The translations under genes were made by a program, and so were the position numbers. From Paramacrobiotus metropolitanus (Eukaryota > Tardigrada > Eutardigrada > Parachela > Macrobiotidae), in the NCBI RefSeq assembly GCF_019649055.1, contig NW_026570424.1, forward strand, positions 62,001 to 126,000: a stretch of DNA of 64,000 nt, given 5' to 3'. Under the pieces are notes generated by a model, which was not told where the DNA came from, did no database searches, and saw only the letters and a list, made by a program, of their open reading frames with translations. Of the stretch, positions 5,872-50,100 are shown in pieces; within the stretch, counting starts at the first letter, position 1; the number at the start of each line of letters is the position of its first letter.

Positions 5872-8074
5872 TTATTCATCCCCCTCTTCGTCCTCACGGC
5901 TGGGTTGCTCCGCGTGACCGGACTGGTCTTCGTGATTCCAGTCCTGCAGGCGGTGCGTTAAGGCCGCCAGGCAGGATTTGTTCAGCTGGCCGACGTCCAC
6001 ACTGGCCATATTGACCAAGGACCCACGGCAACCGCGGTAATGCGCCGACAGATGCGGATCGCTGGCTTGGTACTCATGCACAATCTACAACAGATAAGTA
6101 CGTCATCTTTCAAGAGACCTGAACTACTTTGACAGCAACTACATTTCAGCAGCTTCTAAAATTATAAAATCAAGCGCAAGCAACGGGAGAACCAATTTAA
6201 AATTGGAAAAAAATGGCGTTAACCTGGTTCCGTGCAGAAACAGTCTTTATACCTAAGTAAATGTACGGGGATGGTTCGAGTAAGATCGGTCTTCACATTG
6301 GCAGTGTCAGTACTGTTCATGGTGCCATGGCCTTACCTCATTCCCTTCTTGGATCCTCGCTTCGCTGTCAGTCCGATCGGCCAGGCAGTGCGCAATCCGC
6401 TGAGCATCCGCCGACGGTCCTTCGCAGCGCAGAAGCTTCTCCAGCAAATCCCCATTCTCCGCCTCATCGACACTGCCTCCACTGATGACAGCTAGGGGAA
6501 GGCGGTACTCGAAGAGGGGCGCCCCGGACCTGTCTTCCACCACGGTAAGGGCGAAATCTTTCAGGATCAGAACATCACACAGTGAGGCCAGCCGAGAATG
6601 GATCAAACCCGTAGTGATCTCGGAGGACAGACCTCCCCGTTTCCACTGCGCCAGTTCCGTCTCACTGAGCCGGTACGAGCGCCGGTCCACAATAAGACGG
6701 TGCAGGCGGAGGTCGTCCTTATCCAAGAGATACTTCATTAAGAAGAACGCTTCATTGCCATACGCTCCGCTTTCGCGCAGACTGACGGTGCGGGCGACGG
6801 GCGTGATGTGCTTCCCCAGGCACGCGTACAGGAAGTAATCATCCTCGAAGCGGTGCTGCGGCCGCGCGACACGCACATCGCTGCACATGTCCGCTGTCGT
6901 CAGAAGGTCTGCCCATAGTGTGCAGACGCGGCGGCAGCGCACGCGGTCGACGGTGTCCAGCGAGAGGAAGATCTCTTCCAGCACTTCCACCGACAGGATC
7001 AGCGGCTGCTTCCGCTTCGGCTCAGCATCCGTTTCCTCGTTTTCCGTAAGGGATTGGATTTTACGGTGAAAGTCAAGCTTTGCCCTCTCTTTTTCAAAGA
7101 CCAACGCCTGTATAGCACGAATAAAATTATGTATAACTAATTTTATCCAGTTACAAAAAAAGAGTAGCCAGCCGTTCAAATCATGATAAACAAAATCTGA
7201 CCAGGCACTTTAGATTTACTTAGTTTTCGTTTAATTCAGAAAATGTTTACTTTCGTTTTGGTTTGATTGTATGAGACGAGTTTTACGGTTTGCCAAACCT
7301 GGAAATGGGTGTGAGAGCAGACTGAGCAGTCATCACTGAACATTCTCACCATGCCAAAATTGTGCTACTGATCCTTTACTTGACTGATGACGACCGCCAA
7401 AATACCCCAATGCAGTTGCAGGTAACTGAAAAATCTCCAACTTCAACAGCGACTTACCACAGCGTCTTCCTGAACAGGCTCCTCCTGACGCCGTCGCAGA
7501 TAGCGCAGCGTCTGACCGAGAACCGGGACACATCGCAGCTGGTACGTATTCTCCACTTGCTTGATCAGGAACGCCGATACCGACGGCTGCAGGGCCCAAC
7601 AGCCATTGGGCACGTTGCACGTCTCGGTGACGAAATGGCCCGCTGCAAGAAGCCCGGACCGTGCTGCTTCTTCGCAGGCGTCGCGAACCTGCAGCCAGGG
7701 AAGCAGTTCGCGACGAGACTACCCGTTCACCACCACCTCCACCAGCGCCATCTCCTCCAAGTCGTCAAAGTGCGAAACCAGCATCTTTCCGCGATACCAG
7801 GTCCAGTGCGGGCCGTCACGCAGCAGCACTTCCACAGCAGCTCCTCGCTAGGGAATCCGCTAGCGGATGGATTCCTGGAGCACTCCCAGATCTTCCCGTA
7901 CGCCACCGGCACCGCCTGTTCTGTCGGGCATCCCAAATCGACCAGCAGACGCGGGGGACCGCTCTCGGTCTCTTCCAGGCCGACCACGTGGCCGTGCAGC
8001 AACCGACCGTCAATCTCCACATCCACAGCGTTCCATACGTACAACGATCGTCCGGTATTTTGGTACAGGTGCAT
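5872..8074 (-). pseudogene. Tudor-like/F-box family, broken copy (three exons)
   Basis: Exons by comparison with the intact paralogue at 8640-10772 are 8074-7458, 7107-6337 and 6084-5872, all with GT-AG borders. Exon 1 starts MHLYQNTGRS and encodes the Tudor-like part, but it is 617 bases against 615 in both other copies. After the PYGK/AYGK..WEC motif the frame shifts near 7835, so the block matching VEVLLHDGPHW is in another frame, and a TAG at about 7720 replaces the Gln of the NGQ/DGQ position. The F-box exon is still open, with LSVEVLEEIFLSLDTVDRVR near its start, and the last exon keeps the YQASDP...SVDVGQLN block and an acidic tail. A shortened protein starting in intron 1 (ATG about 7179) is possible. 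The gene lies head to head with its intact paralogue 565 bases away. Confidence 0.75.
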
Positions 8075-8639
8075 TCTTTACTGGGCTGGTCAAGAGAGGC
8101 GGGAAATGCACGCTGGATGGCAAAGATTTATTACGTAAGAAACGGCGATATTACAAGTTACCAAACGGTTTTTAAACAGAAAAAATAGTACAGTACTGTA
8201 CTGTACATACTGGGCAGCTTTCGCTGACACGACTGATAAGTGATAGTACTTGTACTACTCGTACAATTGTCCACCGTACTAAGCACGTACTGCAGCACGT
8301 ACTAGTAGTACCGAGTACGTGCTGCAGCTGTTGCAGCACGCACTACTACGTACGTGCTGAAGCGCTGTTGCAGTTCGCAACTTCGCATGAGCGCTGACGC
8401 TATGCACGCACTGCTGCTGCATGCCCAGACATGAAAATTCACGCATGCAGCTGACGGTGAGCAAGCGCACAAACCGTTCATCAGCTAGCGTAGCCACTGT
8501 CCATAATTTCTTTCGTTTTCTAGAAAAGCAGCATTGTCGAATTTATTTGTAGTGGCATGCTTGGCAGCCTTACGTCCACTCGATTATTTTCAAACGCGTC
8601 TCATTTTCTGCCTCGAAAGTACAAACCAGGCAGACAGAA
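8075..8639. promoter_or_regulatory. Divergent intergenic region between two Tudor-like/F-box copies
   Basis: This gap separates start codons of two paralogues on opposite strands and must hold both upstream regions. It contains a perfect 14-base inverted repeat, ctgcagcacgtact at 8290-8303 and agtacgtgctgcag at 8314-8327, within a GTAC-rich, simple-sequence stretch (about 8190-8360). No conserved promoter element was identified. Small open frames on both strands look spurious. Confidence 0.4.
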
Positions 8640-10772
8640 ATGCATCTGTACGAAGACACGGGACGATTGGTGTACGCCTGGAATGCTGTCGATGTGGAGA
8701 TGAAGGGTGGACTGCAGCACGGCCACGTGATCGGCCTGGACGAGAACGACAACGCTCCACCGCGTCTGCTCGTCGATTTCGGATGCCCGACTCAGCCGGC
8801 GGTGCTGGTGCCCTATGGGAAGATCTGGGAATGTTCCTCACGGCGATTCACTGTCCTAAATAAGGGAACTGCGGTGGAGGCGCTGCTGCACGACGGCCCG
8901 CACTGGAAATGGTACCCGGGGAAACTGCTGAAGCCCCGCTTCGACGACCTGGAGGAGATGGTGCTGGTAGAGGTGTTGGTGGACGGACAGCAACGTCGTG
9001 AACTGCTTCCCTGGCTGCAGGTTCGCGGCGCTTGCGCAGAAGCAGGGAGGCCAGGACAGATTGAAGCGGGCCACTTCGTCCTGCAGACGTGCAGTGTGCC
9101 CGACGGGTACTGGATTCTGGAGCGATCGGTAGCGGCGTGGCTGTTGCGAGAGGTGGAGAGGATGCACCAGCTGCGCTTTGTCCAGGTTCTTAGTCAGACG
9201 ATGCTCTATCTGCGTTGCCGACGGGACATGACGTGGGGCGGTGAAAATATGGTGGTAAGTCGTGGCTTGTGATGGAGGACTGCACAACGCTTCAGACCCG
9301 TTTCACAATCAACCATAATTACGGACATGAATTATGGTCGTGAAACGTATAGATTGTATTCGGTGAAACGGCGCGTTGTGAAGATCGGGTTATGAACTGT
9401 CGTGTAACGATGACAAAAATAACTGCTTTTCAATTTCATGGAAATACAGTTAGGTAATGATATGATTTCATTCTGTTGTCATAGGCGATCGAGTTCGAGA
9501 GAAACAGAAACTTTTACAATGAGCCACTGAAGAACGCCGGGACGTCGGCTGACGCTGAGCCCAAGCGGAAAACACCGGTGAGCGTGGGTGAAAAGCACCT
9601 GGCGTTGCCGTTGGAAGTGCTGAAGGAAATCTTCCTGTCGCTGGACACCGTCGACCGCGTGCGCTGTCGCCGCACCTGCCAGCTGTGGACCAGGCTGCTC
9701 ACTGCGGACGACGTGGGCAGCGAGGTGCGTGTGGCGCTCCCAGAGGACCGCGTTCGGGATGTCTACGCCCTGTACGCTTGCATCGCCAAGTCCATCACAC
9801 CCGCTACCCGCACCATCTCCCTGCGCGAAAGTGGAATGTATCGCGAAGAAGTGTTCGACGTGGCGCAGAATCTGCTGAATGATGCCGGGATCCGCATCCA
9901 CCGCTTCATCGTGCACCGCCGATCCAGTAGCCTCGAGGAATCCGCTGTGACGCTGCCCGCGCTGTCCTCCGAGATGACCGCGGGTTGGACCGAGCTGCTG
10001 CCCTACTGTCAGCGGCTGATTGTCAAGGATTTCGCCCTGACCGTGCTGGAGGACGAGCTAACCGTTATGGAGTTCCGCCTTCCCCTGATCGTCTTTACCC
10101 GGGGACAGGTCGATGAGGCGGACGTCGTGGACCTGTTCGAGAAGCATCTGCACCACGAGGGGCCGCCGGTGGATGTGCAGCGCATCGCCCAGTGCATGGC
10201 CAGTGGGATGGTCAGTAAAGAGAGGGCCAGAGCCGTGAGAAAGGTGCGTCTGGAGTAACTGATGATATAGTATTATTAATACTGAAGTACAGTATTTAAG
10301 AAGCATAGAGGAAGCTTTTCTGTTATAAATGCCGTTTGTTTCATACATAGTTTGTACTGGCATTATGATACTTATTGAAGGTGATACTGCTTTAACAAGC
10401 AGCATCTTTATGATGCTTCTTTCAATTTACCAGACTAAAGGAAAATATTTGTATGGGAAGACGTTCCTCGCGTGACCGAATGTTAGAGGCGTTTTCCTGA
10501 CAATTTATTTGTTTTCTGGAATAATAATATGACGTAGAACGTGCTGAACAATTCTGCAGATTCTGCAAGCCTACCAAGCCAGCGATCCGCGTCCCTCGGC
10601 GCACTATCAGGAACACCGATGGTCCCTGTACAACATGGCCAGCGTGGACGTCGGCCAGCTGAACCACTTCTGCTTGTGCGCCTTATCCCGCTACGTGAAC
10701 GACTGGCGGCACGACGACGACTTGTCCAGCGATTCCAGTGATAACGAGTCCGATGAGTCTGACTACTGGTAA
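8640..10772 (+). CDS. Tudor-like/F-box protein, intact copy (three exons, about 528 aa)
   Basis: Exons are 8640-9254, 9485-10243 and 10560-10772, all phase 0 with GT-AG borders. Residues 1-205 (exon 1) contain two similar modules: one around AWNAVDVEM...VPYGKIWEC, the other around VEALLHDGPHWKWYPGKLL with a later VDGQQRRELLP. Each has the spacing of a Tudor/Agenet-type barrel, which is inference. Exon 2 carries an F-box at about residues 236-275 (LPLEVLKEIFLSLDTVDRVR followed by CRR..CQLWTRLL), the motif by which F-box proteins bind Skp1 in SCF ubiquitin ligases. The rest of exon 2 is helical, variable sequence. Exon 3 encodes SVDVGQLNHFCLCAL and ends in a Ser/Asp/Glu-rich tail. A likely role is substrate recognition for ubiquitination; substrate unknown. 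An AATAAA at 11069-11074 may end the transcript. Confidence 0.8.
10290..10395 (+). mobile_element. 3' end fragment of a LINE-like element, inside intron 2
   Basis: The block starting 'gcatagaggaag' and continuing through 'ttataaatgccgtttgtt', 'catagtttgtact' and 'atgatacttattgaagg' matches the region just before and after the stop codon of the reverse-transcriptase remnant at 11795-11850, and the end of the insertion at 12190-12235. It is a 5'-truncated copy, as expected of non-LTR retrotransposons, sitting in the second intron of the intact Tudor-like/F-box gene. Confidence 0.6.
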
Positions 10773-11068
10773 AAGGCATCCCTTTTTGTTTTTGAGGACT
10801 GCTAATCAGCTGAATGTTAATGCGGTAGGCAAGCTCTTCGCGCGCGTGACACGTACCGCTCGCATCACAGTCACGTGGTTAGCTGAGCGCTATTTATGTG
10901 TTTTTCTCATGTTTTATTCTAGATATTTTCTTCAGTTTTGATATTTTTCCGGATCCGCACAGGGCACAGGTTATCGGTTAGAAGGATTTCGTTGTGCAGT
11001 GCGAAGTGTTGAGTTCGCCGCCGTCCTTGTGATACGGCTGTGTTCGTTTGTTGATTAGCGTGCTGTTG

Positions 11069-11074
11069 AATAAA
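11069..11074 (+). terminator. AATAAA polyadenylation signal
   Basis: A canonical hexamer lies about 300 bases past the stop codon of the intact Tudor-like/F-box gene, followed by an A/T-rich stretch. It is the first good signal in that direction. Confidence 0.45.
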
Positions 11075-11625
11075 TAATTTAATAAGGACATTAATTGTGT
11101 GCTCATTGAGCCAAGTACTCTGTAGTAGCCTCGCGCAGGTAAACCCACAAGGTATCGTGTCGCAGTGGGTCAGCGGTTCGCCAATTTACACTTGCTCTCT
11201 GCAGTTTTGACCTTTCCATATTATCAAAGTACTTTCTTAAGCATACCACTTTAGCAGGTAAGAACTGGTACATCTGTACTCGTAGTGACCCTCGAAAGTC
11301 CCACAGCTTAAAGGTCAGTACGAGTGCAGTTTCTGTCTTGGTTCCAACTTGGATCCAAGACGGAAAACTGCTATGTCTAACCGACGAAAGAAATGTTGTC
11401 AGTAAGAATATCTCTGACCTTGTACCCAAGGCCAGTTCCACGTGTAGGAATTCAGAAAAATCTCATTTGTTGCGGGGATGGAATACTTGCGTTAGTTACT
11501 ACTTACAGAATATGCATGACTAGTACTTTCATGAGCAAAGGTCACAATGATGCGCTATAAAGAGTGTAAGATGCTGTACTACGTCATAACGGTTATAGAT
11601 ATTTTGCAGTGTACAAGTAATAGCG

Positions 11626-12272
11626 GTATTACTAATGGAGACGGTACTAAAAAGCTAGTGGAAACGGTTGGAAACGGTATAGCAACTTCAACTGGCCAAA
11701 AGCGGGCGAAAGAGTTTTTTAAACAGCGAATATCTATGCAAATACAACGGGGAAACGCGATTTGTGTAATGGGTACGATCCCCGATCAGGATAGCATAGA
11801 GGAAGTGTTTCTTTTGTAAATGCCGTTTTGTTCTGGTGCATAGTTTGTTTGTGGATGGTGTAGCGGTCTGGGCTGGCAGACCGCTACACCATCCAACCGC
11901 TGGCGTTCGAAACAACCGGAACTTTTGGACCGCTGACGAAAAAATTCTTCAAAGACCTATCTAGAAAGATTTGCGACTGTACGGGCAACCCACGCTCAGG
12001 CGAGTTTCTGCGCCAGAGAATTGGTATCGAGATTCAGCGAGGAAACGCAGTTTCTGTCCTCGGTACATTTAGCGACATGGTTGAGAAAGAAGATGTGTAT
12101 TTTGCATTTAAATTAGCTGAACGGGAATGAGTCCTTGGACTTTTGTTATTGTTACTATAGTTCAAACGGTGTGAAACTATTGATAACCAAATGTAGCTGT
12201 TTGTACTCGTACCATGATACTTATTAAAGGTTTTTGATTTTTATGTTAGGATGACACCGTCAGGGATATGTA
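11626..12272 (+). mobile_element. LINE-like reverse-transcriptase C-terminus remnants, inserted with an 11-bp target duplication
   Basis: Two related coding remnants follow each other. The first (about 11626-11819) ends with KEFFKQRISMQIQRGNAICV followed by an MGT motif and a stop. The second (about 11896-12130) has FETTGTFGPLTKKFF, then FLRQRIGIEIQRGNAVSVLG and a stop. The '(R/K)QR(I/L)S..IQRGNA..(V/I)(L/M)GT' block is, to my knowledge, typical of the extreme C-terminus of some non-LTR retrotransposon polymerases. No catalytic domain is present, so the copy is dead. Flanking direct repeats AAGTAATAGCG fit target-primed integration. Between the two remnants is a near-perfect hairpin. Confidence 0.65.
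11852..11895. repeat. Perfect 19-bp hairpin
   Basis: Arm 1 (11852-11870) reads tggatggtgtagcggtctg and arm 2 (11877-11895) is its exact reverse complement, with a six-base loop ggctgg. It lies exactly at the junction between the two reverse-transcriptase remnants. Confidence 0.9.
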
Positions 12273-13751
12273 AAGTAATAGCGTAAGTATTGGAATGCTC
12301 GGACTGGAAGTGTTGTGGCACCACAGAGAAACCGTCTTGGGAAACATCAGCAGTGCAAAGTCACCTCGACAATGCGGTGAGAGGTTATTTGGCAGTTGCG
12401 TTTTGGATAAGTTTAGAAAATACTTCTCAAATCTCCCAGATTCAGTTTTCTCCACACCCGAGGTAACCAATGTAGAAAACTGAATTTTCCCCAATTTAGT
12501 AACCGGCTTACACTCATCACCGTGGCAAAAGACGTAATACAGGGGTTTAAAAGCTGTGCAACTGGAAAGGTCTCTGTATTGTAGTGTCAACAGCAGCGAA
12601 ACAGTAATGACAGCAGGAGGGGGCGGGGAGCAGTAGACCAAGTACAGCTGTCTTTTTTATTCCGCACAAAGTTTGGAAGGGTCCGTAATATTAGATTTGC
12701 AGTCATTCTGCAGTTTGCACTTTGCACTATACATTCACGCAAATGAAAACTTTTTTAAAGGAGACTGCGCAAGTAAGAAGACCTTTGCGCGAAAAACATT
12801 TGTCTGGTTTTTCCGACACCTCCCCCAGAGATGCAGCACCGTTCGCTCAGTCGTATTACATGACCGCCTCCCCCTGGGTTCACCACAGCCGTCAGACTCG
12901 TTGCAGATTTTTACTTTTCAGTTTACAGTTTACACCCCTCTCTGGTCTACTAAAAATATGGTCTATCATCTATGGATTTCCCATAACTTGCTAGTCATAG
13001 AAATTAGCAGTTTTTAGGTGTTGATTTGGCTGAGCCATTCACCTTATTACGTACACAAGGCCCATTTTTTTGCATTACAGTCGCCAGCGAGACAGATAAG
13101 AATGCACCTGTTAGAAAACACCGAATTCCCTGTGTACGCCTGGAACGCGGTGGATGCGGAGATTGACGGGCGGCTGCAGCACGGCTACGTCGTCGGTCTG
13201 GACGAGAACGACAGCGCTCCACCGGGTCTGCTGATCGATTTCGTGTGCCCCGGGCGGCCGTCGGTGGCGGTTCCCTATGGGAAAATCTGGGACTGCTCCG
13301 CCCATCGATCCAGCGACCCCGGGAAGGGAGACGTCGTGGAGGTGCTGCTGCACGACGGCCCGCACTGGAAATGGCACGCGGGGAACATTCTGATTCCCGC
13401 GTTCAGTGACATAGACAAGGTGGCGCTGGTGGAGGTGCTGGTAGACGGGCAGCGGCGGCGCGAACTGCTTCCCACCAAGCAGATTCGCGACGCTTGTGGA
13501 GAAGCAGGGAGACCCGGACTGCTTGCCGCGGGCCATTTCGTCCTGCAGACGTGCAGCGTGTCGGGCGGCTACTGGCGTCTGGAGCCGTCTGAGTTGGAGT
13601 TTCGCAAAAGTCGGATTGAGCGCAAATTCCGTCTGAAGATTGTCAGGGTTCTCAGTCAGACGATGCAGTATGTGCGGCGGTGGCAGGAGGTGCCCCCTTT
13701 GGGGGACAACGATTTAGTAAGTCGTTGTTGGGTTCATTTTCCCGGTTCAGA

Positions 13752-14485
13752 GGGCGATTCGTGAACAATAGTGCGCAATGGCTTTAAAATGATAATGGCG
13801 CATTGTATTTTTCGCTATTCACTTTGCGCAAGTAACCGGTCGATTCGCAAACCGGTGGAACATGGGCGATTCGCGAACCTTTCCCGTACAGCATTATTTT
13901 ATATGTGTGTTTCAACTCACTTTCACTTATTACTGTAATCAACCAAAACATTTGATGTCGCTATGCGATGAACATGCATTTATCAACAATCATCAACAAT
14001 TTAATTACTTATGACTAGGGTTCTTTATGACATAGTTAGTGCAGCCAAAGTTATGACTCCATCCGATCCTAAACTATTCAAACTTAGCTAACGTGTGGGT
14101 CAATTGGGAAACAAACTCCATCTCCGTGATGTTTCCGTCTTTTAGTTGGAAAGTAGCTAGGAAGATATTAGTTGTGATGTCCAGATACATTTGTCTACGA
14201 GGATTGACCGATAAATTTATCGAGGAGTACCCTCGATAAATTACTGCCGGCTGATTACGTTTTGTTGTAGTAATGACGAGCCCATCCATTTTTCAATCAG
14301 CGGCTGTTGCGTTTAAAAAAATTGTACTTTTATTTTTTGCATATACCACAACTAATTTGTGGTAAAATTAAAAGGTTCGCGAATCGCCCCTACGGGTTAG
14401 CGAATCGCCCGGTGAGTAACAATGGACACGGATCCAACGTTGCACAACCCGGATCTGGTAATGGATCCGGGTTAGCGAATCGCCC
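13752..14485. mobile_element. Nested terminal-inverted-repeat element(s), family GGGCGATTCGC
   Basis: The first intron of the third Tudor-like/F-box copy holds an exact 19-base inverted pair, GGGCGATTCGCGAACCTTT at 13864-13882 and its reverse complement at 14371-14389. Outside it are more copies in matching orientation: GGGCGATTCGTGAAC (13752-13766) and a diverged one (about 13838-13852) on the left; GGGTTAGCGAATCGCCC at about 14395-14411 and 14469-14485 on the right. This looks like a non-autonomous DNA transposon that landed in, or was rearranged with, a relative. No transposase is visible; the short minus-strand frame at 14074-14289 resembles nothing I know. Confidence 0.65.
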
Positions 14486-15040
14486 ATGATACCCATTTTC
14501 CCTAATACACAACTGTCAACAAAAAGAGCATCTGCATGTTTAAACTTTGAAGATAGTCTTAACACAAGCTTGTAATCGTAAAGTGAGGAAAAGTCAGGCG
14601 TGCCAAGTACAATACTTGTGAACCATGGCATGGACAGCGATATCTAACGGTGCATCTCGATAAGTCACTGTGCTACTTAGTAAGTACTCTAATTAATTTT
14701 GACCCTAGGCCACCGCGTTCGAAGCGGAGCAGCATGACGACGGACCTTTGTCGGAATTTCAGTTATCGGCACAAGACGAAGACTCGGATGATGAGCCGAA
14801 ACGCAAGAAATTAAACCCTTGCGCTTCGACTCAACGTGCCGTTGGGCGTTGCCGGTGGAAGTGTTAAAGGAGATCTTCCACACACTGGACACCGTCGACC
14901 GGCAGCGCTGTCGTCGCGTCTGTCCTCTGTGGGACGCCCTCCTCACGACGGCGGAGCTGCGCCGCACGGTGATGGTGTCGCAGCCGCCGGGCGGCACTGC
15001 GTCGCCCACGCCGTGTACATGTACATGTAAGTCTGATGTA

Positions 15041-15233
15041 GCTGTACATGCCGGAAGGTATGTACAGCTTAGGACGAAATGGTCGCATCGACGCATACCC
15101 AACATCTCCACATTCAGTACGTATTCAGCGCAGTGCACTGTACGACTGAGTTCAAAATATCCGTTTCGTACAAGTGCACTGCACCGCTTGCGTACAGAAT
15201 GCTGGGTATGGGGCTATGCGACCATTTCGTCCT
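15041..15233. mobile_element. Foldback (MITE-like) element inserted in an F-box exon
   Basis: Arms at about 15071-15145 and 15166-15233 are imperfect reverse complements over most of their length. Matching pieces are 'aggacgaaatggtcgcat' with 'atgcgaccatttcgtcct', and 'cagtgcactgtacga' with 'tcgtacaagtgcactg'. A second small hairpin (gctgtacat / atgtacagc, 15041-15068) precedes it. Comparison with the intact paralogue shows that coding sequence stops just before (VYMYM) and resumes just after (MYACLFKHLTPATR). Confidence 0.7.
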
Positions 15234-16405
15234 ACATTGTACGCCATGTACGCGTGCCTCTTTAAGCACCTCACGCCGGCCACCCGCATCTTCTGCCTGC
15301 GCTCCGAGTAGCACCTGTGTATCGAGGACACGGTGGGCGTCATCCACGACGTCCTGGACGATGCCGGCATCCGCCTCGACCGCTTCATCATGGACCGGCG
15401 CTCGCTAAGCGTCATGCCTTCGATATTTGCCAGCTGGAACTTCCGTCTGCTGGAAAAGGATGTGCGCTGCGAATGGCGGGCGTTGGATGTGGAGCGTGCT
15501 GCCCAGTGCCCACTGCGTGGCCAATCTGATCGATAGCGAAGTGAAGGCCAAGAAAGTAATGAAGGTACGGACGTTAGCAGTAGTCCTGGTGTGTTGTCTC
15601 TGATTTTAAGACACTTTTCTGACCGACAATTTGCTTTTCTACAAATTCCCTGTCCGAAATCCTGCCGAAACTATTAATTTTCGTTAAGCGACAGCTTAAA
15701 TTTTGTCGATTTGCTTCTTATGTCTTGAATGTTTTTTCTTACCAGTAGTGTCCGGATAGTGCCAGATTCCTCTAAAATTGAGACTTACATCACTGAGTAC
15801 GATAAAATATGTACTATTTCCATAAAGTTGTTACTTTCCGGTAAGTATCGTCGGTTGCCGGTATCGCACTGTGTCGCAGTGTAAAGAAAGTAAATATTTA
15901 CGTGGATGCCTCGTTTTAACGCATATTGCTCCAGCAAACACTTACCTGCGCAGTGTTCATGATTTATGCGTGTTGTTCTGTTTAATATTCCTCTTGCATG
16001 ATTTGAATGATTCTGTACGAGTAATTAGTTTATGCATTGTAGAAAGTATAAACAGTTGTAATGTAGCCTTTCTGATTGTTTGGTTAACTTGTAAATGTTA
16101 ACTGATTTGTACTCTGCCGTCGTTTACAAATAAAAGCTTTCTCGTTGTAATGTTATGTTCAACCTGCTGCGCGCGTAATTCTGCAGATTATGCGGATTTA
16201 CCAATCGTGTGATCCGCGTCCGTCGGCGCAGTATCGGGGTCACCGGTGGTGCGTGTACAATGTGGCCGGGGTGGACGTCGGGAAGCTGAACAGTTTCTGT
16301 CTGTACGCCTTTGCGCACTACACGCAGGACTGGTTCCAAGCAGCCGTGGAGGACAGTGCATCCAGTGATGCACTGTCCTCTACGGCCAGTGAATCCAGCG
16401 ACTAA

Positions 16406-18135: not shown

Positions 18136-20492
18136 TCACTGAGTGATAAACGTGGCCTGCATCTCGAAAGAATACCGCCATTTGTCTTGACACTCGTGTA
18201 GTCGGGCCGCATCGCCTTCCAGTCTACTGAGCGGTATCGTTGTCCACGGTCCACATCGGTCCGCATCATAGATGTGCATAAAGGACATGGCTAAGGTGTC
18301 TCGACAGTGTTGGTAAACGTAAATCCGTGTGCCGTCCACAAAGGCACAACGCAGTTGCAGCCGATGCTGAGGATGCTCCGGTAGAGGACGCATGGATTCC
18401 CACGTTCGAAGATTCATATTCAGACGCCAACAAGAGCCTGATATCTCTTGGCAGCTTTTGTCCTGCTCCTTCCATCCACCCAAGACATACAAATACCCTT
18501 TTAGGGCAACCATAAGAAAATCACTATTCGTAATGCATTTTGGCAGGTATGAAAGCCTCTCCCATATGTTATTGGCCGTATCAAACAACTCGAATGCTCC
18601 TGGCAGGTGTCGGCTGTAGCCGTAATAGATTATACCACGATCACAGTGTGCGGCGTGGCTGATATAGCGCAGGGGAACGCTACAATAAATCGAGAAAATA
18701 TTACTTAATTAGATAAGTATTATTACCTCCTGAAATTTAGTACATAAGTCAGTATCAATTATTGAGTAAACTACTCCTATGAATTTCAAGACCGTAATTC
18801 AGTGTAATAATTGGTACATGCGCAAGCCCGTACCATTCTCGCAGCTTCTTGACCGACCCTGCTAAGTAGGTGAATCCGTCAGTCGAAAGTTGGCATTCGA
18901 AGAATAGCGTTCTATCCTTTTCATATATCCAGAAAAAAAGATGATTTCCCTTCACCATAGGATAGTGCACACGCTCGAATAGCGAATTCACCGTCGCATC
19001 AACAGGTGGTTGTACATGGTAGGACGTTTGTTGTGCGGCGTTCCAAATCGAATGCAACTGGGCAGTATTCTCGCTCTTTTTTAAGCAGAGAAAGCCTCCT
19101 TCAACTGGCACAAACTCAAACCTACCGTCTTGTTTTGCATGCACCGGTACGTTGGTGCATGGCAGCTGTCCTATTGCAGTAGAAAGGGGATCAAATGCTT
19201 CGGCCAAACAAGCAGGCGCCCCGAATGCACCACTGCTGTAGAGGATTATCCACAGCTTTCTCGACGGTTGGATATCGGTTCTCGCGGGGATATCACACTT
19301 AGCCTGCGACAGTTGTGCCAGCAATTCAGCTGGGGATATCCGGACACTGCCGTCTGTGCCCAAGCATCGGCGTATGCAATCCGATAGGCCCGCTGGAATA
19401 GCGGCACTGACAAACGGGGTATAACCGTTAATAATCAGAGCGGCAAATTCGTTGTCGGTCAGTCTACTTCCAGCTTCGACTACAGTGTTGCCTTCAGGAT
19501 TAGTCAGGCGCTTGGCCACCGGTCCAGCAAACAATAAACATTCCGCCATTTCCAGCAAAATGCAACCTAAACTCCAAATGTCCGTCTTCCGGCCCGGCGG
19601 ATTGGTGGTGAACTGTCCTACAAATTTTCTTACCATTTCAGGGGACATGTAGCGAATAGTACCGCGCAGGTGGGAAATGTCGTACGAACAGGTCGCACTG
19701 TGCTGCATCTGCACCAGGTCATCGAGGTCGGCGATCACTAGAATCCTTATGCCGGTGCCTGATTGTTTGATGAGCACATTTCCTGGCTTAAGGTCACCGT
19801 GTATTACGTTGTTTGAGTGCAGGAATTCCAGCCCTTTTGTAATGTCGGCTGCATAATGAATGACAGATTCCACAGCGAGTACAGCCTCTTTCGCTTTTGC
19901 TGTCTTCATGAGAGAAGCCAAATCCCCGGCTGCAAAATTAGACAACAACAACTGCACAGTAGCACAACCCTGTACATGTACTGTATATCTGTTGTATATA
20001 ATATATATAAAATTGACGTAGAACCTCTGTATATACAAAATATATAGCTCTGTTAGTATGTATATACGAAAATACGAAATGTATAAATATACGGAATTTT
20101 CGTTAGCAACATGCTCATCACGTACCAGCGTAATAATCCATTAGCAGTTCAACGGACACTCCTCCAGCGCAGTATGTGACGGTCACTTTGCGATACGTCG
20201 CAACGTTGGCATGCCGGAGACTGGTCAGGGTCTTCATTCGTCCAAGCCATTTGGACCGCTTTTCAGGCGAAGCAAAAAGTTCGTATTCATTATGGAAATA
20301 AACAGCCTTGACAGCTGCAAAATCAAAATCATACGGATTCCCTTGCTTTGTGACAGTGGCTTTGTAGACAATACCAAAGGCTCCTCTGCCAATATAATCT
20401 GTCGTCTTGTATTCATACTGACAACCACTACCAATGGTCTCCACATGGACGTTCCCCGCTGCAAACGGTCGCATATCATATATCTCCCCCAT
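18136..20492 (-). CDS. Protein kinase fused to kelch-like repeats (three exons, about 668 aa)
   Basis: Proposed exons are 20492-20126, 19929-18834 and 18679-18136, with GT-AG borders and closing phases. The N-lobe has a glycine loop (IGRGAFGIVYKA) and the ATP-binding Lys in FAAVKAV. The C-lobe has GLEFLHSNNVIHGDLKPGNV, so the usual HRD is HGD while the catalytic Asp, Lys and Asn remain. The DFG motif is DLD (VIADLDDL) and the activation-loop end is YMSPEM, then DIWSLGCILLEMA. It is therefore probably active, with unusual HRD and DFG variants. After the kinase, residues from about 400 onward look like beta-propeller blades; the last exon has kelch features (FDTANNIWERL, YLYVLGGW). The start is uncertain; an upstream exon may exist, since the frame stays open to 20528. 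The donor after LRE is supported by the same position in the duplicate near 23 kb. Confidence 0.7.
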
Positions 20493-47193: not shown

Positions 47194-50100
47194 CTCATGA
47201 GCAGGCGGCGCCGTTGTTGCACATCATTTGATACTGCAAATAGAAGAGTAACGCCATAAATTAAACTAAAAAGGAAAATACTGAATAATTCAAGCAATTT
47301 AAATGGTAATAAATCGGCGATTTTAATAATTTAATGTGAGCAAATGAAATGGGTGTACCTCGAGGTCGTTCTTGGGTATGTCGAATATCTCGGCGAAGAG
47401 GGGCGGCATGTGCGTCAAGTAGTTCCAGTTGGCGCGGAACCAGTCCAGCTGCTCGCCGTGCAGCTGATTCACACTGCGCAGCTCGCCCAGCAGCGCCATC
47501 GCCGACTGGAACAAGAAGGGCTCGCCGGCGCGCTGCCGGCGCAAGTGGACGCGCAGCGCCTCCTGCAGGCTCTCCTGCAGCTGCTCCACCAGCCGCGGCT
47601 GCAGCTCCCGCTCCATCGCCGCCACCGCCGACGGAGCGCCCCATCCCACGCGGTCTACCGTAACACGCGGGAAACAATCACAATTATTTCAGTAAAAAAA
47701 AACAATGCTTAATTTAATTCCAATTAGATCCAATTAAAATTTAACTGAATAAACAAATTAATACATCAGCTGACGACGTACCGGGCGTGTAGAGGACGAT
47801 GGCCGAGAGGAGACCGATGTCGGTGTCGGTCAGCTGCAGACTCTGCATGTCCGCGCAGAACTTGAACATCCGCCCGGCCACGTCTGCCTGCAATGCACCA
47901 GAAGGTTACCCACTTTATCAAACAGCTGAATATGTAGGAGAAAATTATATCAGCGACAAAGCATTAATTTTGCTCTCGTTTGACGAATTTATCCTGCAAC
48001 ATAAGTAACTGTAGCAGCGGATGACCGACAAAACTCTAGATTGCCACCGCACTACGATAATTCCTGTGAATACTGGTAAGAAGCGTGGAAAACTGCGCAA
48101 AAATTCAAGAAACTTATTGAAATAAAATGGACACATAATTTATCAACGTGGAAAAATAATTCAGTAAATTATGAAAATAAATCAGGAAATTATTAGACAG
48201 ATTAGGAAAATAATTGTACAAATCAGGATAATAATACCGTAAGGTAAACGAGAAAATTAATTCCAATTTAATGGAGAAACTGTAATTGTTTTACCTCGAG
48301 GATGAGTTCGAGCTGTTGGCGCGTGACGTAACTGCCGTCATGGAAGGTCAACTGGCCGTGCACGCCCATCCGGCCGATGTGCAGCATCCACATCTCGAAG
48401 AAGGCGCCCTTGATGAGGATCAGCTGCTCCGTCTGGCTCAGCTCGCCGAAGCGCGGCGTCCTCTTCGCAAACTCCACACTCCGCTGGATGGCGGGATTGA
48501 TCAGGTTGGCCAGGCTCTGCCACATGAGGATCCGCTGCAGGTGACTGCTGTCCGGCGCGCACTGCGGCTGCGGCCCGCCCTTGGGCAGCCGCGGCGGCGC
48601 CGCTTCCGGCTCGGTGAGGATGGCCGGGTGGCGCGTGTTGAGGAGCTGGCGCACCTTGTCCTCGGTGTAGAAGCAGTTGGCTGTGTGCGCCTGGCTGACG
48701 GTGAGGATGACGCTGTACACCGACTGCAGCTGCTGCTCGCTCTCCACGCCCAGTTCGCTGAGCTCCCCGGGGAGCTGGCCGTGGGACTGCGAGTCGGGCG
48801 ACTCGCTCTTGATGACCCCGCCGGGGTAGGCCGCGGAGGAGGAGTCCACGAGGGGCGCCGACGGGGGCGGGTGCTTGGACGTCGAGGGGTCCGCGTGGCG
48901 CGGGGTCCGCGATTTCGGCACGCGCCCGTACCGGACGGCTGCCGTTACATCACAGTTATCACCATCTTTTTCAATAAAAGTTAAATTTTTAAAAAAATTA
49001 AAAAAAATTCAAAGACATCTACATAAACAATTAATAAAACAACAAATTTTAAACTATTTAATTAAATTATGCGGATTAAATCACATTCAATAAAACTAAA
49101 CGTATTAAGTTAAAAGAGATTTAAATTAAACAAACTTTAAACCAGGTAATTCAAACTAATTTCAACTGGGTACTTAATTATTCGAAAAGTAAATTTTAAT
49201 TTCGATTATTTTAAAATTTAAAACAAATAAAAAATGTCAGATTAACATTCAAAAATTCGAGATACTGAAACGAAACAAATTTGAATAACTACTGCAGAAA
49301 TGAAAATAAAAATTGGACAAAATGATTGTATGTATGGACGTACAGTCGCGGGACATGCCGACAGAGAGGCACTTGCGGAAGCGGCAGAACTGGCAGCGGT
49401 TGCGGTTGGCGCGCTGCACCGTGCAGCGGCCTTCGCGCAGACAGCGGTACTCGATCTGCTTCTGGATGGAGCGCCGGAAGAAGCCCTGCACCACAACGAC
49501 CATTAATATCTGTTCAAAGAGACGACCAAGGCGAAAAGCAGGACACACCTTGCAGCCTTCGCAGCTGGTGACGCCGTAGTGGTAGCCGCTGGCCTTGTCG
49601 CCGCACACCTTGCACGGCACGGCGATCTTGCTGGGCGTCGAGGAGTTGGAGTCGGCCGCGGCCTGCAGACTGCCGTCTAAGAAACCACGCCAATATTAGA
49701 TTAATAAATCAGAATTAATTGCAATGTATTTTTACAAATTATTTTTCTGTGGAAACAAGTGTACAGCAGCACTTACCGGCATCCTTGGTGGTGTGGAGGT
49801 CCAGGTCGGAGATCTCGGAGGTGGTGGTGCTGGCCTCGAGGTGCTGCAGCGCCCCCTGCAGCGGATCACTGCCGTCGCTGTCCGTCAGACCCAGCGCCCG
49901 CCGCTGCGCCTCCTCCCCCGCCTCCGCCTCCCCGGCCCCCTCCAGCTCGCCCTCCAGGCCGCCGCCGCCGCACCCGTACACTTCCGTCGAGTGGAACAGC
50001 AGCGGATCCTCGTCGGCTGACTGCAATCAGACCAACTGCCAATTTCCACTCACACAGCCAACCAACTTCATGCCGGCAACGGTCAAATTATTCACAAACC

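What the first reader, a model, noticed from the sequence alone, without database searches (positions are those of the whole stretch)
5872..16405. A three-member gene family pairing a Tudor-like double module with an F-box, caught at different stages of decay
Seen directly: three copies share a 205-codon first exon, an F-box exon and an acidic last exon with identical phase-0 borders. The copy at 8640 is intact, the one at 5872 has a frameshift and a stop in exon 1, and the one at 13102 has a broken F-box exon but an intact exon 1. F-box proteins normally carry WD40, LRR or kelch substrate modules. An F-box joined to a possible reader domain would be a distinct class of SCF adaptor. The head-to-head and tandem layout suggests recent local amplification.
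Basis: partly seen in the sequence, partly recalled or inferred. Interest (0 to 1): 0.75.

Follow-up and report, generated by a model that had tools for sequence, protein, structure and literature searches.

The report
Hundreds of Tudor–F-box genes, tardigrade-like genome
The window holds three of several hundred related gene copies, intact and broken, that join a probable double Tudor 'reader' module to an F-box: an unusual and greatly expanded kind of ubiquitin-ligase adaptor in what is probably a tardigrade genome.

Summary
Three copies share a 205-codon first exon, an F-box exon and an acidic last exon with phase-0 borders. The copy at 8640 is intact (528 aa); the one at 5872 is broken in exon 1; the one at 13102 is broken in exon 2, where a repeated 181-bp inverted-repeat element sits.

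"Three-member family" is far too small. Four exon-1 queries of the window's own 170-Mb genome give 519 merged loci, though each search scored only part of its candidates. An F-box exon follows in 5 of 5 distant members sampled.

Exon 1 is most likely a Fragile X-type tandem Tudor/Agenet module: a 66-row profile matches this genome's FMR1 N-terminus at score 43.3, against at most 20.4 in 200 shuffles. A weak model suggests one barrel; the second rests on sequence alone.

The copies are not recent duplicates of one another. Best reading: a lineage-expanded set of SCF substrate receptors with a Tudor-type recognition part. Expression, Skp1 binding and ligands are untested; the species (Paramacrobiotus metropolitanus) is inferred from assembly size.

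The parts
8640..9254 (+). copy B exon 1: tandem Tudor/Agenet-like module (about residues 11-66 and 76-130) plus a C-terminal tail (131-205)
9485..10243 (+). copy B exon 2: F-box (exon residues 40-72) and a further ~180 residues without a Pfam match
10560..10772 (+). copy B exon 3, acidic tail with stop
7458..8074 (-). copy A exon 1, broken by a frame change in the linker and an in-frame stop
6337..7107 (-). copy A exon 2 (F-box exon), open
5872..6084 (-). copy A exon 3, open
13102..13716 (+). copy C exon 1, open
14709..15564 (+). copy C exon 2, broken: frame changes, stops and an inserted element; F-box core readable in another frame
15062..15242 (.). inverted-repeat element (44-nt arms, 84% complementary) inside copy C exon 2; 39 further copies at 93-94% identity among the 40 scored of 341 candidates
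16187..16405 (+). copy C exon 3, open

Best explanation
The genes encode F-box substrate receptors of SCF (Skp1-Cul1-F-box) ubiquitin ligases. The N-terminal exon supplies a tandem Tudor/Agenet module that recognises the target, the F-box in exon 2 docks on Skp1, and the variable region after the F-box and the acidic tail add further contacts. The family has grown to several hundred loci by tandem and dispersed duplication with continual gene death, so that many different targets can be sent for ubiquitylation. Shown here by computation: the architecture, its recurrence, its scale, constraint on the coding sequence, and profile similarity of exon 1 to a Fragile X-type tandem Tudor. Inferred: Skp1 binding, ubiquitylation, and that the Tudor module is the target-binding part.
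For: F-box in B at E 2.2e-7 and in 43 of 43 exon-2 members given. Exon-1 profile of 66 rows: its three best PDB matches are ARID4A, FXR1 and FXR2 Tudor entries, at weak E-values of 0.41-0.87; the two FXR alignments run along both barrels. Agenet is the commonest Pfam match, in 4 of 66 members, best E 0.0016. hhalign to this genome's own FMR1 N-terminus: probability 84 and 90 with score 43.3, against maxima of 20.4 and 18.4 in 100+100 shuffles; the FMR1 KH part and the F-box-exon profile reach a probability of 0.1 at most. The 16 distant rows alone give probability 80. An Agenet search of the genome gave 7 weak matches, none over the cut-off; 3 of them (two on C137, one on C168; E 0.026-0.36) lie inside exon-1 loci of this family. 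AF2 model: of the 50 VIA-align entries shown, all matched at about residues 12-69, 47 are Tudor, chromo/chromobarrel, Agenet or SAWADEE domains and 3 are myosin VI; FMRP tandem Tudor has Z 6.2, rmsd 2.3, 54 aligned. F-box exon downstream in 5 of 5 distant exon-1 loci. 69 of 150 F-box hits have a module locus of the merged list within 3 kb on the 5' side, against 5 of 150 on the 3' side; 6 of 8 F-box loci picked by hand have the module upstream. Constraint: F-box dN/dS 0.28, module 1 0.34, module 2 0.51. Four Skp1 matches in the genome.
Against: Copy B and copy C exon 1 alone match no Pfam family at E<=10; the Agenet matches of 4 of 66 members are weak, and the PDB profile matches are not significant. 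Models rest on window rows only and are poor: exon 1 pLDDT 45.7 (about 56 over residues 11-60), exon 2 37.7. No Foldseek match reached E<=0.001, and VIA-align Z values are in the range the tool calls middling. The 36 closest rows alone give only probability 38 to FMR1. The first Tudor half of FMR1 alone (14.4) and an Agenet-like piece of this genome, L091 (17.3), score at shuffle level; the second FMR1 half carries the signal (32.5). 81 of 150 F-box hits have no locus of the merged list upstream, though four of these were shown to have the module by the profile; 2 of 8 picked by hand show none. A ligand-binding aromatic cage was not tested. No expression data.
Confidence: 0.66

Rival explanations
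1. Exon 1 is not a Tudor module but an unrelated beta-rich domain specific to this lineage; the proteins are F-box adaptors with a new substrate fold.
For: Only weak Agenet matches in 4 of 66 members; poor model; FMR1 Tud1 alone and the Agenet-like piece L091 are not matched above shuffle level.
Against: FMR1 match far above 200 shuffles and the other controls; 47 of 50 structural entries shown for residues 12-69 are Royal-family domains.
Confidence: 0.2
2. Largely a decaying relic: most loci are dead duplicates kept by duplication rather than function.
For: Two of three window copies are broken; a number of genome matches hold stops; some loci look like duplicates or haplotigs (C35 and C195 with nearly equal spacing).
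Against: 44 of 60 modelled loci have both main exons open with a start codon and splice sites, though these loci were mostly chosen for long matches in both exons. Pooled dN/dS is 0.49 and 0.51, lowest in the F-box; the pairs come from rows without stops.
Confidence: 0.1
3. The F-box part works outside SCF (for example as a scaffold or chromatin protein), with the Tudor module reading methylated proteins.
For: F-box proteins with non-SCF roles exist (recalled). Skp1 gives 4 matches from 6 candidates here, against 23 Skp1-related genes in C. elegans (PMC12919956, passages read).
Against: The F-box is the most constrained part (dN/dS 0.28) and keeps its Pfam identity in 43 of 43 members given.
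Confidence: 0.08

Closest known systems
Caenorhabditis F-box-FTH and F-box-FBA2 families
   Same: Lineage-specific F-box expansion of hundreds of genes, at least 43-74% by tandem duplication in the four species tabulated; F-box under stronger constraint than the rest (PMC8665587, passages read).
   Different: There the substrate part follows the F-box and is FTH or FBA2; here a Tudor-like module precedes the F-box. No dN/dS above 1 was seen here in 524 exon-1 and 331 exon-2 pairs, whereas that paper reports windows above 1.5 in 73 of 95 C. elegans pairs. 23 Skp1-related genes in C. elegans, 4 Skp1 matches here.
Fragile X proteins (FMR1, FXR1, FXR2) N-terminal tandem Tudor/Agenet
   Same: Profile match along both barrels to this genome's FMR1 and to FXR1/FXR2 chains.
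   Different: An F-box exon follows; no KH domain is among the Pfam families listed for 66 exon-1 and 43 exon-2 members; hundreds of loci.
UHRF1 (tandem Tudor plus RING E3; architecture recalled)
   Same: Would work alike: a Tudor reader coupled to ubiquitin transfer; UHRF1 tandem Tudor entries are among the structural matches.
   Different: UHRF1 is a RING-type E3 (recalled); these are F-box adaptors, inferred to serve a multi-subunit ligase.

Membership tests
F-box proteins | F-box domain above the curated Pfam score | tested here: met
   31 bits against a cut-off of 20.5 in the 528-aa protein; PF00646 at E<=1 in 43 of 43 exon-2 members given
F-box proteins | Binding to Skp1 in an SCF complex | not testable with these tools
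   Skp1 matches exist in the genome; binding cannot be tested here
Tudor/Agenet (Royal family) proteins | Profile match to the family | tested here: inconclusive
   Agenet in 4 of 66 members, best E 0.0016; the call gives no scores for them, but (E 0.00041 = 21.2 bits, cut-off 27) they should fall short. Strong FMR1 match against 200 shuffles
Tudor/Agenet (Royal family) proteins | SH3-like barrels | tested here: inconclusive
   First barrel suggested at pLDDT about 56 over residues 11-60 and 32 over 61-70; second not resolved
Tudor/Agenet (Royal family) proteins | Aromatic cage for methylated residues | not tested
   Conserved W14, F47, W89, W91 noted but not placed in a cage
Nematode FTH/FBA2 F-box families | FTH or FBA2 domain after the F-box | tested here: inconclusive
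   Neither is among the 13 Pfam families listed for 43 exon-2 members at E<=1; remote likeness not excluded

The most novel reading that the evidence does not exclude
This animal lineage has independently evolved an arsenal of several hundred SCF adaptors whose target recognition uses a Tudor-type reader placed ahead of the F-box, so that modified peptides (for example methylated lysine or arginine on histones, germline, transposon or pathogen proteins) are turned into degradation signals on a scale that my searches found no description of.
Probability: 0.35. Interest if true: 0.85.

Novelty: new variant of a known kind. Interest (0 to 1): 0.62.

Why it matters
If true, it adds a class of F-box adaptor (Tudor first, then F-box) and an animal F-box expansion in the size range of the nematode ones (300-500 F-box proteins in the C. 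elegans lineage by PMC12919956, passages read; 519 merged module loci here, fragments included), built on another recognition module. It would let one ask why some animal lineages multiply ubiquitin adaptors, and whether reader domains can be recruited as degradation receptors. I found no description of it in these searches: 'tardigrade + F-box + gene family expansion' (0 papers), 'tardigrade + F-box protein' (3 papers, on other subjects by title and abstract start), 'Tardigrada + F-box domain' (on another subject), 'agenet + F-box + domain architecture' (on other subjects). The library holds open-licence papers only, and no other tardigrade genome could be searched.

Tried and rejected
Recent local triplication: not supported by dS and the tree (the tree's bootstrap had not settled). 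Positive selection as in nematodes: no pair with dN/dS above 1 and no 15-codon window with pN/pS above 0.89, so an arms-race reading has no support here, although pooled counts on paralogs are a blunt test. Viral origin: one scan of viral contigs, with one pattern, gave 5 pattern matches, none a relative by tblastn. RNA genes in the window: no Rfam match at the gathering score. Exon-2 fold: model too poor, not searched. A single-sequence PDB search of exon 1 gave two chance-level matches (E 0.14 and 1.2). Broader paper searches: (F-box/Tudor terms, 22 papers, 20 listed; tardigrade genome terms, 64 papers, 12 listed) showed nothing on this pairing by title and abstract start; of the papers in those two lists, none was opened.

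Rows dropped: alignment A1 used 64 of the 67 exon-1 references that passed (L026, L046 and L068 left out) plus two window rows; 13 of 80 loci had been dropped for stops or short matches. A2 used 42 of the 52 exon-2 references that passed plus one window row; 8 of 60 had been dropped for stops or short matches. The exon-1 list pasted has 149 rows of the 161 matches; the rest were not printed, except one printed row (C444:12290) that I left out. In one search I pasted 150 of the 157 matches (the rest were not printed), 138 of 138 and 150 of 150. Of the 62 full-gene stretches chosen I fetched 59 and added L068. Of 44 exon-1-only stretches I fetched 20, leaning to distant members.

Full report
Observation. 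Copy B reads as 205 + 253 + 70 codons and a stop, 528 aa, with GT/AG phase-0 borders. Copy A (minus strand) has the same borders; its exon 1 changes frame in the linker and has an in-frame stop, while exons 2 and 3 are open. Copy C has an open exon 1 and exon 3. Its exon 2 keeps both splice sites but is out of frame, and it holds a 181-bp inverted-repeat element at 15062-15242. That element is a common repeat: 40 of 341 candidates were scored, and the 39 other than this copy match at 93-94% identity.

Scale. The window is part of contig C204 of a 169.8-Mb assembly in 533 contigs. The copy-B exon-1 query gave 161 matches with 150 of 652 candidates scored; exon 2 gave 154 with 150 of 876 scored. 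Of 149 listed exon-1 matches, 104 have an exon-2 match within 4 kb downstream on the same strand. Three further members as queries gave 157 (150 of 1074 candidates scored), 138 (131 of 867) and 150 (150 of 760) matches. Merging the four lists gives 519 loci on 107 contigs, 440 of them spanning 450 bp or more. It is a lower bound in that each search scored only part of its candidates; on the other side it counts fragments and some duplicates. C35 and C195, for instance, hold matches with nearly the same spacing and scores, which may be haplotigs. Most of the distant matches to the last two queries were not checked for an F-box.

Architecture. Of 60 loci modelled for splicing (59 chosen for long matches in both exons, one added by hand), 48 have an open exon 1 with start codon and donor, 54 an open exon 2, 44 both, and 25 of those also a third-exon model (the third exon often found no match in the fetched stretch). 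In 5 of 5 distant exon-1 loci taken for a test, the F-box exon follows. Pfam F-box: 150 of 1080 candidates were scored and all 150 pass the cut-off. 69 of these 150 have a locus of the merged list within 3 kb on the 5' side and 5 on the 3' side; 81 have none on the 5' side (the strand of the module locus was not used). Of 8 F-box loci picked by hand, 6 have a recognisable exon-1 module upstream (best E 9e-26 to 1.7e-9) and 2 (C54, C147) do not; four of the six count among the 81, so 69 is too low.

What exon 1 is. Exon 1 of copies B and C has no Pfam match even at E<=10. Across 66 members the commonest Pfam match is Agenet, in 4, best E 0.0016. The 66-row profile ranks ARID4A, FXR1 and FXR2 Tudor entries first among PDB chains, at E-values that are not significant on their own (0.41-0.87). 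Against the N-terminus of this genome's own FMR1, found with the Tudor_FRX1 model, hhalign gives probability 84 and, on match columns only, 90 with score 43.3. The highest of 100 column-shuffled profiles is 20.4 and of 100 shuffled FMR1 sequences 18.4; reversed controls give 14.1 and 17.5. The FMR1 KH part and the F-box-exon profile reach probability 0.1 at most. The signal comes mostly from the second FMR1 barrel (32.5), not from the first alone (14.4), and an Agenet-like piece of this genome (L091) scores only 17.3. The 16 distant rows alone give probability 80, the 36 closest rows only 38. Conversely, an Agenet search of the genome gave 7 matches, none over the cut-off, of which 3 (C137:271138, C137:262559, C168:31133) lie inside exon-1 loci of this family.

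Structure. In the exon-1 model, residues 12-69 look like a barrel (pLDDT about 56 over residues 11-60, 32 over 61-70). Foldseek gave nothing at E<=0.001, though many listed matches are Tudor or chromo-type domains. VIA-align, which only re-aligns Foldseek's own candidates, gave MRG2 chromodomain Z 6.5 (rmsd 2.0, 53 aligned) and FMRP tandem Tudor Z 6.2 (rmsd 2.3, 54 aligned); 47 of the 50 entries shown are Royal-family domains and 3 are myosin VI; the tool warns that Z under 8 may be only a common arrangement. The second barrel is not resolved. The exon-2 model shows helices in the F-box region, at a confidence that cannot be used.

Evolution. dN/dS over disjoint close pairs is 0.49 for exon 1 (21 pairs) and 0.51 for exon 2 (13 pairs); by part: F-box 0.28, module 1 0.34, module 2 0.51, tail 0.57, region after the F-box 0.54, linker 0.88. 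No pair exceeds 1 among 524 of 2145 exon-1 pairs and 331 of 903 exon-2 pairs with dS 0.02-1. In a 68-row tree (bootstrap not fully settled), copy B pairs with L010 of the same contig (96/90), copy A with L007 (88/41, weak), and copy C lies at the base of a 7-row group holding them all (97/95). So the three copies are older neighbours, not a fresh triplication.

Organism. A paper on Paramacrobiotus metropolitanus gives a 170-Mbp genome and a longest scaffold of 4.48 M for the published assembly (PMC11191345, passages read; 'F-box' does not occur in its main text). Here the assembly is 169.8 Mb and contig C1 is 4,484,719 bases. I infer this species; no marker gene was compared.

Mechanism and comparison. 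The most likely function is substrate reception for SCF ligases, with the Tudor-like module and perhaps the post-F-box region as recognition parts. The nearest parallel is the nematode F-box expansion; a review that I read in passages puts it at 300-500 F-box proteins in the C. elegans lineage and says that targeting of intracellular pathogens was proposed, with evidence still lacking or limited (PMC12919956). Here Skp1 gives only 4 matches from 6 candidates and no positive selection was seen, so I do not press an immune role. A second paper, read in passages, describes Caenorhabditis F-box subfamilies with FTH or FBA2 domains (PMC8665587); in a third, a search for five terms found no mention of tardigrades, Tudor or Agenet (PMC12062965).

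Noticed in passing
window 15062-15242: 181-bp element with 44-nt inverted arms inside copy C exon 2; 39 other copies at 93-94% among 40 scored of 341 candidates
   Followed up: partly
window 18758-20140 (-): Protein kinase domain, Pfam Pkinase E 2.5e-25
   Followed up: no
window 48271-49008 (-): Nuclear hormone receptor ligand-binding domain, E 4e-6
   Followed up: no
L068 (C31:211300-212900) and C31:183040-184575: Members whose exon-1 and F-box-exon matches lie in one long open frame (526 and 534 aa), perhaps intronless copies
   Followed up: no
L091:1411-2325 (+) and L092:838-1740 (-): Frames of about 300 aa with Agenet matches below the cut-off (E 0.00041 and 0.00058); L092 also weakly matches the exon-1 profile (E 0.00039)
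   Followed up: partly
contigs C35 and C195: Family matches with nearly the same spacing and scores on both contigs, possibly haplotigs or a segmental duplication
   Followed up: no
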